This document shows positions 36,612 through 41,762 of a DNA stretch of 64,000 nucleotides, one piece after another (positions within the stretch are counted from its first letter, which is position 1; every line of letters starts with the position of its first letter). Under the pieces are notes generated by a model. That model searched no databases, was not told where the DNA came from, and saw nothing but the letters and a program-made list of their open reading frames with translations. The position numbers were made by a program, and so were the translations under genes. This DNA is from Verrucomicrobiota bacterium (lineage in GTDB: Bacteria > Verrucomicrobiota > Verrucomicrobiia > Limisphaerales > UBA11358): NCBI GenBank assembly GCA_028872915.1, contig JAGWNY010000001.1, positions 1 to 64,000 of the forward strand, read 5' to 3'.

Positions 36612-39600
36612 TTATTTCCCTTTTCCAGCCATCATCCGCTCCGCTTTTTCTATCCAATCGGCGGCGGGCCGGCCGTAAGGACGGAAGATTTCCGTGTAGC
36701 CTTCGCGGTCATTGTAATAAATCGCCCGGTGAAGGCCCAGCGAGCCGGCTTCGGGCGAATCAATCAAACCGGCGGAATCGCTCGCGCTCATCTGAAAAAG
36801 CACCCGCATTTCAAATTCCGCCAGCGTCTTGCGGCCCAAAAACCGGGTGGCGTTGTTGTACGTGTCGCAGGCGGCCAGAATATGGATGCCATTGGCCGGG
36901 CCGTCGCTGATGAGTGTCTGCAACACGGCGTCGGGCTTCATTTCGCCGCCCCCGGACGAAAAACCAAATTCATCCTCCTGCCGCAATTTCTTGAAATTTT
37001 GGAGGCCGTTGATCAGCAGGAAAATTTCCGGCGCAGGCGCTTGGGAAGCGGACCGTTTTTTGAGATCATCAGCCAGGGCCGCCATGATTTCGGCGAGGCC
37101 GGCATTGCTTCCAAAAACAACTTCATGCGGGACGGCCCGGCCGACGCGCTCGATGAATTCGCGTTCGGGAAATCCGGGCGGAGCGCTATCCAGCACCACA
37201 AACCGCGCGGCGCCTTTGGGAAATTGCGCCGCCAGCGAAACGAGGGCGACCGCGAGAATCGTCAGCGAGCGTTCCTCGCTCTGGCCCGCGATCAGGAGAT
37301 TGGCCCCGCTTTGCCTTTGGAAGGTCGCTTCCGTGGGGCCTTTGATGGCATTCGGCGCGCCGATCCAAATGCGCGATCGGACGGGCGCCTCAGCCGGCGC
37401 GCTCCCCAGCACGTCGCGCAAGTCCTGATTCTCCCGGACATCGGCGGCGGCATTGCCTTCGAAGATGAACGGGCCGGGAAACTGTTTTTCATCGGCGCGG
37501 GCGCGGATTTTTGCCAGCCAATCGTCCCGGACGCCTTCGGGCAGCCAGACCGCCTGGAATGGGCTGTTGCCTTCGAGCGCGCCGGCGGCATCGTTGTAAA
37601 TGCCCTCGCCGGGCCGGGACAGGAGGCGAGGAGCCGGATTGTCCTGGTCCATGATGAGGTAGGCGTCGGCTTCGTTGCATTGGAGGGCGATGCGGATGAC
37701 CATTTGACCGATCGTGGCGCGGGCCAGGGTGTAAGCCCCGCCCAGCGTCTGCGAACCCAGCAATACGTGAATGCCAAAGGCGCGCCCCTGCCGCACGATG
37801 CGGTCCAACAAAACCGCGGCCGACTGGGAAACCCTGTCCTCCTCGGTAAAAAATTCCTGAAATTCGTCAATCATCAACAGCGCGCGCGGCATGGGTTCAG
37901 TGCCGCCCGCGCGCTTGTAACCGGCCAGGTCCTGAACGCCGGCCTGGCGGAACAAATCGCCACGCCGCCGCAATTCCTCGTCCACGCGCTGCAACACGCT
38001 CAAGCCAAAGGCGCGGTCGCTTTCGATGGCCACCACCCTGGCATGGGGCAGATGACGGCTCGCGTAGCACTTGAACTCAACGCCTTTCTTGAAATCCACC
38101 AGATAAAACTCAACCTGATCGGGACCGCACCAGAGCGCCAGATTCGTGATAATCACGTGAAACAGCGTGGATTTCCCCGAACCGGTCTTGCCGGCGATCA
38201 GGGCGTGCTGGCGCGTGCCCTTGCCGATTTCCAGATACTGAAATTTGGCCGCGCCCGACCGCCCGATGGGCACCCGGAGTTCCTCCACGGTTTCTTCGCT
38301 CCACATTTGCCCTTCCGGGGGCGTCACCTCTTTAAATGGCACTTCCACGCGGGTCGCATCGCCGCTGGCGCGACCGATGTCGTGGAGCAATTGGGTGGCG
38401 AATTCGGGCGACGGCGGTTTGTCAAGAATCAATTTAATTCCAGCCGGATGGCAATCGGCCAGGTAAAAGCGATCCTCGCCGCGCGAAATCCGGACCGCGT
38501 TTTCGCGCAACTCGTCGGGAACAAATTCGTTCGGCGGCGGCTGCCGCTGGTCCCAATGCAACAGGGTATAAACCCCGCAGCGCGCGCCGTTGGCGGCTAT
38601 GTTGCGGAGGCGGCGGGCGGCCGTGTCGCTAAAATTCACCGGAAACGACGCGACCACCAGGAAATGATATTTTTCGGCGATCGTTCCCGCCTGCGCGTTG
38701 TATTCGGCGATGGTCGGATATTCGTTGCGCAGATACATCTGAATGACCTTCTCCATGTGCTCGGTCAATTCCGCGAGCTTTTCCTCAAATTGGGACGTCT
38801 GCGTCCAAATGCGGCTGTTGATGTAGCTTTCCTCGTAATCGGCCAAATGCATCAGCGCGGCAAAATTCTGGCCCAGTCCCACTGGATCAAAAATGGTGAA
38901 GCTGGCCTTGCCCGGCGGCATGGCGGCCAGCAGGCGGAAAATAACGTTGTTGATCGCGGCCACCGCCTCGTTTTCCCCGCCCTTGGTCGTTTCAAATAAG
39001 ATGGAACCTTCCCGGGGAAAGGCGAGCATCAGCGGCGCCGACACCTTTTCTTCCGGAAACGCCAGCCGTTTGTCCTTCGGCGCCGTCTCCACGAATTGTT
39101 TGATGTCAATTTCCAGCCGGCCGAAGCGCGCGACATCCGGAAAATCGCCCGGCGGCGTCCAGTTCCCCCAAAATGCCGGCTCCCATTCGGGAAACATTTT
39201 TTCAGTCTCGGCGGACGCGGACCGGAGCCGCTCAAAGACGGGCAAAATTGTATTCCGCCATTCCTCTTCCAGCGTCCGCCACCGTGACTGGGTTTCCCGA
39301 TCCAGGCTTTGCATCTTCGCCGCCTGATCGGCGGCAAAACGGGCGGCGTCTTCCCGCGCCTGGCCATGCAGGGCAGCCAGGGCGCCGGCGTGACTGGCCG
39401 AAAGCCGTTCGAAGGATGCCGATCGCCGCGCCTGATATTTACGCTTGATATTCGCGGCGCGCCGGTCCACTTCCGCCGGCCGGGTGTCCCGCAGACCCAT
39501 CGCCCCGCGTACCGCATTGCGCCATTCGCGGTTGATGCCCTGGACGGTCGCTTCGAATTCCGCCTTGATGCGCTCCTGGTCCCGTTGCCAGGTCAATTCG

Positions 39601-40481
39601 GCGGCGTGACTGGCGGCTTCCAAAAATTGGCGCATCCTTGCGAGGCCGGCCGCAATCGCGGCTGCCAGTGGCGCTCCACGGCGGCGGCTGTCAAAATAAA
39701 TCAACAGCAGAACCACCGGCGCCGCCAGGGCGCATCCAGCCACCGGCCGGGAGATCGCCGCGGTTGCCCCGCGCTGAAGTGCCGCCAGGCCGACAACCGC
39801 CGCGACCAGGAGCAAAAAAACCAACCACGGCCGGAGAAAGCGAAAAATTTTGGGCGGAATAAATGTCGAGAAGCGTTCCAGGTCCGCCTCGGCCCTCTTT
39901 TTCCAGCGCTCGAATTCCTCCAGCAGGCTCTTTTCGTCGCCCGTGGGTCCCGGTTCCGGCAGGTGCTCGCCGGACGCCAGCCGCCGTTTGAACGCGCCGT
40001 ATCCGCCGAAGGCCCGCCGCGCGCGGCGGGTGAGTTTGTCCACCGCCGCTGCCGCATCGGAGGCCCTGGCGCGGAAATTTTCCAGTGCCACAACCGTGGC
40101 GTCCAGCGCTTCGTCGCGCCGCTGTGCCGCCGCTCGCGTGTCGGAATTGATCTTTTCCTTTATTTCCTCGTGTTGCAGGGCGATGCCGTCCATGACGCGC
40201 TTGCGCATGGAGGCATGGGCCTCGGCAATGCGGGTGGCGCGGTGTTCGAAGTGCGTTTCCAGCCGCGTTTGCGCGGAGCCATAAGCGGCGTTTTCAGCGT
40301 CCACGGCGGCGGCCAGGCGGCTGGCGCGCGCCCCGGCTGCCTCATCGCCCTGCCGGCTTGCCGCCGCGGACCGCCCCTCAAAATCCCTGTTGAGCTTTTC
40401 CTCCCGCGCGGCGAAATCCCGGACGGCGTTCTTCAACGCGTCCAGCAACGCCAGCAATTCCTTGACGCCCGGTTTAGTCAC
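36612..40481 (-). CDS. FtsK/SpoIIIE-type multi-ATPase, EccC-like, membrane anchored
   Basis: A 1289-residue motor protein. N-terminal coiled coil (about 1-205), two transmembrane helices (about 217-236 and 246-263), a second coiled coil (about 275-425), then three ATPase-like modules. The first (about 485-720) is degenerate, lacking a Walker A loop. The second is intact: HALIAGKTGSGKSTLF at about 757-772, RALLMIDEFQEFF near 865, and VLLGSQTLGG. The third (from about 1040) has AGQSEERS in place of Walker A. This order resembles EccC of type VII secretion. ATG overlaps the stop of the 70-residue gene by 8 bases. It probably exports or moves a protein partner, with DNA movement the alternative. 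Confidence 0.8.
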   Translation of the reverse strand: MTKPGVKELLALLDALKNAVRDFAAREEKLNRDFEGRSAAASRQGDEAAGARASRLAAAVDAENAAYGSAQTRLETHFEHRATRIAEAHASMRKRVMDGIALQHEEIKEKINSDTRAAAQRRDEALDATVVALENFRARASDAAAAVDKLTRRARRAFGGYGAFKRRLASGEHLPEPGPTGDEKSLLEEFERWKKRAEADLERFSTFIPPKIFRFLRPWLVFLLLVAAVVGLAALQRGATAAISRPVAGCALAAPVVLLLIYFDSRRRGAPLAAAIAAGLARMRQFLEAASHAAELTWQRDQERIKAEFEATVQGINREWRNAVRGAMGLRDTRPAEVDRRAANIKRKYQARRSASFERLSASHAGALAALHGQAREDAARFAADQAAKMQSLDRETQSRWRTLEEEWRNTILPVFERLRSASAETEKMFPEWEPAFWGNWTPPGDFPDVARFGRLEIDIKQFVETAPKDKRLAFPEEKVSAPLMLAFPREGSILFETTKGGENEAVAAINNVIFRLLAAMPPGKASFTIFDPVGLGQNFAALMHLADYEESYINSRIWTQTSQFEEKLAELTEHMEKVIQMYLRNEYPTIAEYNAQAGTIAEKYHFLVVASFPVNFSDTAARRLRNIAANGARCGVYTLLHWDQRQPPPNEFVPDELRENAVRISRGEDRFYLADCHPAGIKLILDKPPSPEFATQLLHDIGRASGDATRVEVPFKEVTPPEGQMWSEETVEELRVPIGRSGAAKFQYLEIGKGTRQHALIAGKTGSGKSTLFHVIITNLALWCGPDQVEFYLVDFKKGVEFKCYASRHLPHARVVAIESDRAFGLSVLQRVDEELRRRGDLFRQAGVQDLAGYKRAGGTEPMPRALLMIDEFQEFFTEEDRVSQSAAVLLDRIVRQGRAFGIHVLLGSQTLGGAYTLARATIGQMVIRIALQCNEADAYLIMDQDNPAPRLLSRPGEGIYNDAAGALEGNSPFQAVWLPEGVRDDWLAKIRARADEKQFPGPFIFEGNAAADVRENQDLRDVLGSAPAEAPVRSRIWIGAPNAIKGPTEATFQRQSGANLLIAGQSEERSLTILAVALVSLAAQFPKGAARFVVLDSAPPGFPEREFIERVGRAVPHEVVFGSNAGLAEIMAALADDLKKRSASQAPAPEIFLLINGLQNFKKLRQEDEFGFSSGGGEMKPDAVLQTLISDGPANGIHILAACDTYNNATRFLGRKTLAEFEMRVLFQMSASDSAGLIDSPEAGSLGLHRAIYYNDREGYTEIFRPYGRPAADWIEKAERMMAGKGK

Positions 40482-40686
40482 AATCAGTCCTGACTTTGTT
40501 CAAAAGCTCATTCAATTTATCCGCAATGGCAACCGTTTTGTCCACGGCGGGAAACAGTTCCCGCAAAAACCGGGCCTCAAATTCGCGGCTTTTGTCATCA
40601 TGCCAGTAATTCCTCGTCTGCTCCCATTTGATCGAGAGTTCCTTGGCCGCGCCGATGAGCCGGCTTTTGCTGCCAGCCATGCTCAT
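40474..40686 (-). CDS. Small W-rich helical protein, WXG100-like
   Basis: A 70-residue, mostly helical protein: LIGAAKELSIKWEQTRNYWHDDKSREFEARFLRELF then a second helix to the end. The W-x-D-x5-F-like segment (W28, F36) sits where ESAT-6/WXG100 proteins have W-x-G between two helices, but the Gly is Asp here. It lies between a coiled-coil gene (4-bp overlap at 40683-40686) and the FtsK-like ATPase (8-bp overlap at 40474-40481). It is a candidate substrate or adaptor of that motor. The family assignment is inference from size, pattern and context. Confidence 0.55.
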   Translation of the reverse strand: MSMAGSKSRLIGAAKELSIKWEQTRNYWHDDKSREFEARFLRELFPAVDKTVAIADKLNELLNKVRTDCD

Positions 40687-41192
40687 GACGTTTTCTCCGG
40701 CGGCTTGGATGCTTCGGGCGGGGCGGGACCCGCGTAGCTTTCCAGCGTTTTGACCATTTGCCCGAGCGCCGCGATTGCCTTGGGAATTTCCATCATTAAT
40801 AACGTCTGGAATTGTTCGGCCTGCTTGAGCATGGGCGCGCTCCGGTTTTCGAGTTCGCGGTCCCAGCGTTTCACCGTTGCCAGCTTTTCCTCCCCCTCCC
40901 GGACGGACCGCTGCAACCGATTGACCGCCATCACTTGCAGCGACGTTGTCTCTTGAAATTCCGACAGCCGCGCGTTCAACAGCTCCTGCTGCGCTTCTTC
41001 GAGCTTTCGCCGGCGGCTTTTCAACTCATTGTCCCAAAAACGCCGCCGGTCCTGTTGCAGCCAGCCTTTCGTCCGTGCCACTTCCGCCCCAATTTCCTCA
41101 ATTGCAGGCCGCGCCTGGCCCAGAAAAACAATCAGGGCCGCGCGGAAGTTTTCAATCGCTTCGACCGACCTGACTTGCGCTTGCTGGGCCAT
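40683..41192 (-). CDS. Coiled-coil protein of the FtsK-like operon
   Basis: A 169-residue protein with no signal peptide or membrane helix, and an almost continuous helix: IEEIGAEVARTKGWLQQDRRRFWDNELKSRRRKLEEAQQELLNARLSEF and LQRSVREGEEKLATVKRWDRELENR show heptad spacing. The tail is Pro-rich (GPAPPEASKPPEK). Its first 40 residues (AIENFRAALIVFLGQARPAI) are amphipathic. It opens the operon and is coupled by four bases to the WXG-like gene. Likely a structural partner of the motor; no known family recognised. Confidence 0.6.
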   Translation of the reverse strand: MAQQAQVRSVEAIENFRAALIVFLGQARPAIEEIGAEVARTKGWLQQDRRRFWDNELKSRRRKLEEAQQELLNARLSEFQETTSLQVMAVNRLQRSVREGEEKLATVKRWDRELENRSAPMLKQAEQFQTLLMMEIPKAIAALGQMVKTLESYAGPAPPEASKPPEKTS

Positions 41193-41318: not shown

Positions 41319-41762
41319 ATGAAACCTGGAGCAAAAAAATGGCTGCGGTTCCTGGAAACGTGGCTGATTAACACCCTCGCCGTCCTGGTGGCCGTGGCCT
41401 TGTTGCACGGTCATATCAAGTATCAAGGCTGGACGAATTTGTTCATTGCATCCTTGCTCCTGGGAATCCTCAACTCTTTTGTCCGCCCCATCCTCATGTT
41501 CCTGGCCCTGCCGCTCCTCATTTTCAGCCTCGGCCTGTTCACCCTCGTCATCAATGCGCTCCTGCTTTACTTCGTGGGCATCCTCATGGCGCCCGGTTTT
41601 CAGGTGGACAGTTTCGGTTTCGCGTTCCTGGGGGCGCTTATCATCAGCGTGGTTTCCATTTTGCTCAATCTCATGACCGGCAATGCCCGCGTCTCCGTTG
41701 GCCGCCGCCGTCCCCCACCCCGCCGCCCCGGCGGCGGCGATGACAACATCATTGACGTTTGA
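41319..41762 (+). CDS. Phage-holin-4 family membrane protein (YvlD-like)
   Basis: A 147-residue protein with four transmembrane helices: WLINTLAVLVAVALL, WTNLFIASLLLGILNSF, PILMFLALPLLIFSLGLFTLVINALLLYFVGIL, and FAFLGALIISVVSILLNLM. VRPILMFLALPL after NSF is the family signature of the mycobacterial phage holin superfamily IV group, most of which are not phage proteins. The C terminus is Arg/Pro/Gly-rich. It is divergent from the FtsK-like operon with about 125 bases between. Function in bacteria unclear. Confidence 0.8.
   Translation: MKPGAKKWLRFLETWLINTLAVLVAVALLHGHIKYQGWTNLFIASLLLGILNSFVRPILMFLALPLLIFSLGLFTLVINALLLYFVGILMAPGFQVDSFGFAFLGALIISVVSILLNLMTGNARVSVGRRRPPPRRPGGGDDNIIDV

What the first reader, a model, noticed from the sequence alone, without database searches (positions are those of the whole stretch)
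36612..41192. Three-gene operon: coiled-coil protein, 70-residue W-rich helical protein, giant FtsK/EccC-like ATPase
All three genes overlap (4 and 8 bases), so their products are made together. The ATPase has one intact FtsK-type motor module between two degenerate ones and a twin transmembrane anchor flanked by coiled coils, like EccC of type VII secretion but with a much larger N-terminal part. No other known ESX component is near. This could be a minimal, undescribed type VII-like exporter in a Gram-negative lineage. It is the strongest candidate system in the window.
Basis: partly seen in the sequence, partly recalled or inferred. Interest (0 to 1): 0.75.

Follow-up and report, generated by a model that had tools for sequence, protein, structure and literature searches.

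The report
Toxin-free minimal type VII-like export operon
A small, ancient gene set shared by many Verrucomicrobiota joins a type VII secretion-like motor to three small helical partner proteins and lacks the toxin its relatives elsewhere carry, so it may be the simplest protein exporter of this kind yet seen in double-membraned bacteria; no experiment has tested it.

Summary
The trio is real, and its core reading holds. The three overlapping genes are one operon: 76 of 76 distinct relatives with enough upstream DNA keep both small genes, and 74 of 76 also have a fourth gene directly upstream, a 90-residue WXG100 protein. WXG100 and the ATPase occur together almost without exception. The ATPase is EccC/EssC-like (three modules, only the middle one intact) and not a gamma-bearing FtsK.

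It is not undescribed. Zhang 2012 (PMC3482391) noted stand-alone WXG/three-module ATPase systems in Verrucomicrobia. Bell 2024 (PMC11090510) described the nuclease-bearing version inside CoCoNuT defence loci.

What looks new is the verrucomicrobial form. It has a twin membrane anchor, one 169-residue helical-hairpin protein in the position where relatives carry a toxin, one 70-residue mini-WXG protein ending in DC(E/D), no toxin, no defence cassette and mostly vertical inheritance. Best reading: a minimal single-substrate type VII-like exporter. Export itself is inferred. The outer-membrane step and the function are unknown.

The parts
36612..40481 (-). EccC/EssC-like membrane ATPase, 1289 aa: coiled coil about 1-205, two TM segments about 211-261, coiled coil about 270-430, then three RecA-like modules (degenerate about 480-710, intact about 735-945, degenerate about 1036-1270)
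38166..38192 (-). Walker A motif GKTGSGKST of the central module (residues 764-772)
   Evidence: sequence; invariant or nearly invariant in alignment A3
40474..40686 (-). 70-aa mini-WXG-like protein; invariant W28, D30 and F36 (W-x-D turn) and conserved C-terminal D-C-(E/D)
   Evidence: 8-base overlap with the ATPase gene
40683..41192 (-). 169-aa protein predicted as a long two-helix hairpin (8-76 / 80-153) with a variable, often Pro-rich tail; it fills the carrier position of toxin-bearing relatives
   Evidence: 4-base overlap with the 70-aa gene

Best explanation
This is a stand-alone, minimal type VII-like protein-export module in a diderm, encoded ancestrally as WXG100 (90 aa) - 169-aa hairpin - 70-aa mini-WXG - membrane ATPase. 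In this genome the WXG100 gene has moved to another contig. Proposed mechanism: the 169-aa hairpin, the WXG100 and the 70-aa protein assemble into an elongated helical pre-secretion complex, like an LXG or EsaD transport domain with its small WXG-like partners. The ATPase forms an inner-membrane ring through its twin TM anchor and flanking coiled coils, recognises the complex (perhaps through the conserved C-termini), and uses ATP hydrolysis in its single active middle module to drive it across the inner membrane. Because the carrier position holds no toxin domain and each genome has one carrier and one WXG100, the module exports only its own helical complex, probably for an envelope role, rather than a repertoire of toxins. 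SHOWN: operon, co-occurrence, homology of the ATPase and of WXG100, TM anchor, single intact module, absence of YukC/YukD/LXG matches over the cut-off, mostly vertical inheritance. INFERRED: complex formation, export, direction, the role of the C-termini, cellular function.
For: ATPase: EccCa/EssC/EccCb models 7e-34, 1e-29 and 1e-25 against FtsK 8e-7. Profile search puts T. curvata EccC (3.5e-37), EccC5 and YukB above FtsK. Foldseek: EccC 4nh0 4.5e-30, EssC 1e-19, FtsK 3e-12. The tree separates this family plus EccC from FtsK/TcpA-type rows, 96/93. Operon and co-occurrence: all four genes in 74 of 76 loci. WXG100 over the Pfam cut-off in 16 of 17 ATPase genomes and 0 of 272 others across the phylum, and in 27 of 27 against 1 of 13 in close relatives; Fisher p 2e-25 and 2e-9 (ignoring shared ancestry). 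The one extra WXG100 genome, G296, and G004 are contig-edge cases. 70-aa protein: W-x-D in 87 of 87; profile match to the 90-aa WXG family p 4e-4; the 70-aa profile also finds plasmid WXG proteins (Caballeronia 5.8e-7 in a set of 25). Carrier position: in a Helicobacter plasmid it holds a coiled-coil protein ending in a WHH/colicin-type nuclease domain beside an SMI1/KNR4 protein; in Caballeronia and G212 a coiled-coil protein with a nuclease-like end. One carrier per genome in 16 genomes; one WXG100 over the cut-off in all but G212.
Against: No secretion has been shown. The canonical export arm YxxxD/E is absent (0 of 86 WXG100, 1 of 87 of the 70-aa family), and the full WXG100 C-terminal pattern HxxxD/ExxhxxxH is present in only 6 of 86. 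Homology of the 169-aa protein to the toxin carriers rests on position and on one weak profile match (Rhodococcus 314-aa N-terminus, 1.4e-5 in 25 sequences, coiled-coil bias possible). hhalign gave only 34% probability for 70-aa against WXG100, over 33 columns. The central module by itself matches FtsK motors as well as EccC in structure (VIA Z 27.9 against 25-26). No outer-membrane component is known. Relatives in CoCoNuT loci lack TM helices, so homologues may act in the cytosol.
Confidence: 0.6

Rival explanations
1. The module is a membrane-anchored intracellular machine, not an exporter: WXG100, hairpin and mini-WXG are adaptors or regulators of an ATPase that remodels protein or nucleic acid at the inner membrane, in a defence or stress context as in CoCoNuT loci.
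For: Homologues sit in CoCoNuT type III-A loci with VWA, CARF-nuclease and kinase genes and lack a TM pair. Export-arm motifs are absent. The small genes are single-copy, like fixed subunits rather than substrates.
Against: The verrucomicrobial ATPases carry a TM pair (71 of 87 full-length by a strict hydropathy rule). No defence gene is conserved beside the operon. WXG100 proteins of characterised systems are secreted (established knowledge).
Confidence: 0.25
2. It is a toxin delivery system whose toxins lie elsewhere in the genome and use the 169-aa/70-aa/WXG100 set as shared chaperones.
For: Relatives outside the phylum carry nuclease domains in the carrier position.
Against: No second carrier (16 genomes), no second WXG100 over the cut-off except in G212, no LXG, no conserved neighbours within 6 kb.
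Confidence: 0.1
3. It is a DNA translocase or conjugation-type coupling ATPase with unrelated small genes.
For: FtsK_SpoIIIE domain (4e-30); the central module superposes on FtsK motors (Z 27.9).
Against: No gamma domain in the Pfam scan; the family is separated from FtsK and TcpA-type rows (96/93); constant WXG100 partner; no gene at all is conserved nearby beyond the operon; this genome has its own separate FtsK on C25.
Confidence: 0.04

Closest known systems
Stand-alone 'solo WXG' plus three-module YueA-like ATPase systems (Zhang et al. 2012, PMC3482391, Table 1 footnote 6)
   Same: WXG protein with an EssC-like ATPase of three FtsK/HerA modules, only the middle one active; verrucomicrobia and planctomycetes are named
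   Different: The footnote calls them mobile and describes no further genes. Here the ATPase tree follows taxonomy, and the 169-aa and 70-aa genes are constant members.
[quoted passage not shown] 2024, PMC11090510)
   Same: Three-module ATPase with only the centre active, long N-terminal coiled coil, two WXG100-type proteins (one without WxG), one coiled-coil protein; the gene order in Caballeronia and G212 corresponds
   Different: The CoCoNuT form lacks TM helices, its coiled-coil protein bears a nuclease, and it is flanked by VWA, CARF and TerY-P genes. The window form has a twin TM anchor and none of these.
Type VIIb secretion (EssC/YukB with EsxA, LXG effectors and Lap1/Lap2; EsaD with EsxBCD)
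   Same: FtsK-family membrane ATPase, a WXG100 protein, small WXG-like partners of a long helical transport domain (PMC9600955, PMC10653861)
   Different: No YukC/EssB, no YukD, no LXG found; a coiled coil replaces the FHA region; only one intact module; no toxin domain.
Type VIIa (ESX) secretion, EccC
   Same: Best Foldseek and profile match of the ATPase; TM pair
   Different: No EccB found; EccD, EccE, MycP and PE/PPE not searched; the intact module lies between two degenerate ones.

Membership tests
EssC/EccC ATPase family (T7SS motor) | Tandem FtsK/SpoIIIE-type modules behind a TM pair | tested here: met
   Three RecA-like modules predicted; PF01580 4e-30; TM segments 211-261
EssC/EccC ATPase family (T7SS motor) | Sequence closer to EccC/EssC than to FtsK | tested here: met
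EssC/EccC ATPase family (T7SS motor) | Full-length equivalog score (TIGR03924/03925/03928 cut-offs) | tested here: not met
   117.5, 89.9 and 102.8 bits against cut-offs of 509, 347 and 778
Type VIIb secretion system | WXG100 protein (EsxA) | tested here: met
   PF06013 over the cut-off; in the operon of 74 of 76 relatives, displaced in this genome
Type VIIb secretion system | YukC/EssB | tested here: not met
   No match over the cut-off in 15 genomes; the positive control B. subtilis rang
Type VIIb secretion system | YukD/EsaB | tested here: not met
   No match over the cut-off in 15 genomes; B. subtilis rang
Type VIIb secretion system | LXG effectors | tested here: not met
   0 of 16 genomes; B. 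subtilis rang
Type VIIb secretion system | ATPase-dependent secretion of WXG100 | not testable with these tools
   needs an experiment
Type VIIa (ESX) | EccB | tested here: inconclusive
   No match over the cut-off in 15 genomes, but no control genome rang either
Type VIIa (ESX) | YxxxD/E export arm | tested here: not met
   0 of 86 WXG100, 1 of 87 of the 70-aa proteins
WXG100 superfamily (70-aa protein) | WxG-type turn between two helices | tested here: inconclusive
   W-x-D in 87 of 87; profile p 4e-4; no Pfam match over the cut-off; structure not predicted
CoCoNuT type III-A EssC/WXG extension | VWA/CARF/TerY-P neighbours and coiled-coil nuclease | tested here: not met
   No conserved neighbours within 6 kb; the carrier has no nuclease domain
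CoCoNuT type III-A EssC/WXG extension | Three modules with only the centre active, N-terminal coiled coil, two WXG-type proteins, one coiled-coil protein | tested here: met
FtsK DNA translocase | gamma domain (DNA recognition) | tested here: not met
   Not among the Pfam matches up to E 1

The most novel reading that the evidence does not exclude
A vertically inherited, toxin-free, single-substrate type VII-like exporter that runs with one ATPase and three small helical proteins in a diderm phylum and serves a conserved envelope function: the non-toxic core from which, or towards which, the toxin-bearing CoCoNuT and plasmid versions evolved.
Probability: 0.35. Interest if true: 0.75.

Novelty: new variant of a known kind. 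Interest (0 to 1): 0.55.

Why it matters
Type VII secretion is studied almost only in Gram-positive and mycobacterial species, where it needs several membrane components. A four-gene version without the partners that were tested for, kept across Verrucomicrobiota and stripped of toxins, would show the minimum that the ATPase and WXG proteins need, and would let one ask what such a system does when it is not a weapon. It also ties an obscure footnote and a defence-locus description to one widespread, mostly vertically inherited family.

Tried and rejected
FtsK/DNA translocase: rejected on profiles, tree and absence of gamma.

Known defence system: PADLOC hits to SspH, Mad8 and HerA are the shared ATPase domain. 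No defence genes are conserved beside the operon.

Phage or mobile origin of the verrucomicrobial form: viral contigs gave only weak hits to the ATPase domain, and the ATPase tree follows taxonomy.

Fold of the 169-aa protein: only generic coiled-coil matches, none under E 0.001. Sequence search of the PDB gave nothing for the 70-aa and 169-aa families. Pfam scans of every member gave nothing consistent; WXG100_2 was the most frequent weak match for the 70-aa family, 3 of 54.

A relic of the WXG100 gene in the window: none by tblastn.

Anantharaman et al. 2012 is not held; its claim is cited through Bell 2024.

Full report
OBSERVATION. The ATPase has two hydrophobic segments at 211-261. AlphaFold gives three RecA-like modules in residues 430-1289 (mean pLDDT 84). 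Only the middle one has Walker A (GKTGSGKST) and Walker B (LLMIDEFQEF), and both are invariant or nearly so in 52 aligned sequences.

THE MISSING FOURTH GENE. Fetching relatives and searching Pfam WXG100 over 289 genomes of the phylum showed that 16 of 17 genomes with the ATPase have a WXG100 protein over the cut-off, against 0 of 272 without it. The same search over 40 close relatives gave 27 of 27 against 1 of 13. Fisher p is 2e-25 and 2e-9, with the caution that relatives are not independent. The single mismatch, G296, has the three small genes at the very edge of a contig, and G004 is likewise cut by contig ends. In 74 of 76 distinct loci with at least 1250 bp upstream, the order is WXG100 (90 aa) - 169 aa - 70 aa - ATPase, and both small genes of the finding are present in 76 of 76. 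In the window's own genome the WXG100 gene is on contig C90 (4232-4504, minus strand), inside a 60-kb contig whose first 12 kb has a tetranucleotide make-up that correlates at 0.98 with the window. There it remains under strong constraint (dN 0.06-0.08 against dS 1 or more). G086 is a second genome with a split arrangement.

WHAT THE ATPASE IS. NCBIfam: EccCa 7e-34, EssC 1e-29, EccCb 1e-25, FtsK 8e-7, none reaching the equivalog cut-offs. A profile of the family finds T. curvata EccC, EccC5 and YukB before FtsK in the PDB. Foldseek ranks EccC (4.5e-30) and EssC well above FtsK (3e-12). A tree of the active module separates this family plus EccC from FtsK and TcpA-type proteins (96/93; some long branches). 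A fair caveat: VIA-align gives the middle module alone a slightly higher Z to FtsK motors (27.9) than to EccC (25.9), while EccC and EssC align over two to three modules. So the middle module's fold does not discriminate; the arrangement and the sequence do.

WHAT THE SMALL PROTEINS ARE. The 90-aa protein is a WXG100 by Pfam with a W-x-D turn. The 70-aa protein has W-x-D in 87 of 87 members and ends in D-C-(E/D) in 72 of 87. Its profile meets WXG100 at p 4e-4 over the turn and finds plasmid WXG proteins. I read it as a mini-WXG protein; this is probable, not proven. The 169-aa protein is predicted as one long two-helix hairpin (pLDDT 92) with no specific structural match.

WHERE THE TOXIN SITS IN RELATIVES. 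On plasmids and in one Verrucomicrobiota genome the same module is found with a toxin-like protein in the place of the 169-aa gene. In Helicobacter sp. NHP19-012 the order is WXG - coiled coil with a WHH/colicin-type nuclease end - SMI1/KNR4 protein - 77 aa - ATPase. In Caballeronia sp. SBC2 and G212 (second copy) it is VWA - WXG100 - coiled coil with a nuclease-like end (by eye and by correspondence with Bell 2024; no Pfam match) - small protein - about 80 aa - ATPase - CARF nuclease - VWA. In Rhodococcus the ATPase is followed by a 314-aa coiled-coil protein whose C-terminus I read, by eye only, as ParB/sulfiredoxin-like. The link between the 169-aa protein and these carriers rests on position and on one weak profile match. 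In 16 verrucomicrobial genomes there is exactly one carrier of the 169-aa family and no LXG protein. No other gene is conserved within 6 kb. The verrucomicrobial form is therefore toxin-free.

PRIOR ART. Zhang et al. 2012 (PMC3482391, Table 1 footnote 6) state that lineages including verrucomicrobia have solo WXG domains with a distinct YueA-like ATPase of three HerA/FtsK domains, only the middle active, and call them mobile versions of T7SS. Bell et al. 2024 (PMC11090510) describe the CoCoNuT version: EssC homologue with only the central domain active, N-terminal coiled coil, no TM, two WXG100 proteins, coiled-coil nuclease; they cite Anantharaman 2012 for stand-alone copies. The closest experimental analogies for small WXG-like partners on a helical transport domain are LXG/Lap1/Lap2 (PMC9600955) and EsaD with EsxBCD (PMC10653861).

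WHAT IS DIFFERENT HERE. Twin TM anchor in 71 of 87 full-length members by a strict rule, absent as a pair in the CoCoNuT and plasmid forms examined. No nuclease, VWA, CARF or kinase. A conserved C-terminal DC(E/D) in the mini-WXG. An ATPase tree that follows taxonomy (5 changes for 5 groups, shuffled mean 13), so in this phylum the module is mostly inherited vertically with losses, not mobile.

MECHANISM AND LIMITS. The proposed mechanism (pre-secretion helical complex, inner-membrane ring, one ATP-hydrolysing module) follows from established T7SS knowledge. Export, direction and function are inferred. Canonical export motifs are missing, YukC and YukD were not found, and nothing explains passage of the outer membrane. 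A non-export membrane machine stays possible (25%).

Noticed in passing
L129:4232-4504 (genome contig C90): Displaced WXG100 gene of this genome, between a gluconolactonase-like and a porin-like gene, still strongly conserved; whether it is co-regulated with the trio is unknown.
   Followed up: partly
L135:6666-15137 (G212, contig C1): A CoCoNuT-type extension (VWA, WXG100, coiled coil with nuclease-like end, ATPase, CARF-PDDEXK, VWA) in the same genome as the toxin-free operon: both forms coexist in one verrucomicrobial genome.
   Followed up: partly
L137:5734-9802 (G051): A third, compact layout: 836-aa ATPase, a separate 316-aa coiled-coil/TM protein and two 97-aa WXG100-like proteins, next to a gene with Sel1-like repeats.
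   Followed up: no
L163:3018-11635 (Rhodococcus pseudokoreensis plasmid): A related three-module ATPase beside Hsp70, GrpE and TPR genes and a short helical protein weakly like WXG100.
   Followed up: no
L148:10450-11394 (Rhodococcus sp. AH-ZY2 plasmid): Coiled-coil protein with a C-terminal stretch that looks like a ParB/sulfiredoxin fold (by eye; no Pfam match), possibly a toxin domain in the carrier position.
   Followed up: no
window 41319-41762: Phage_holin_4_2 (PF04020) membrane protein gene divergent from the trio; it is not conserved beside the operon.
   Followed up: no
L165:6817-10665 and L166:1767-2798 (G086): Second case of a split operon: ATPase on one contig, the three small genes together on another.
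   Followed up: partly
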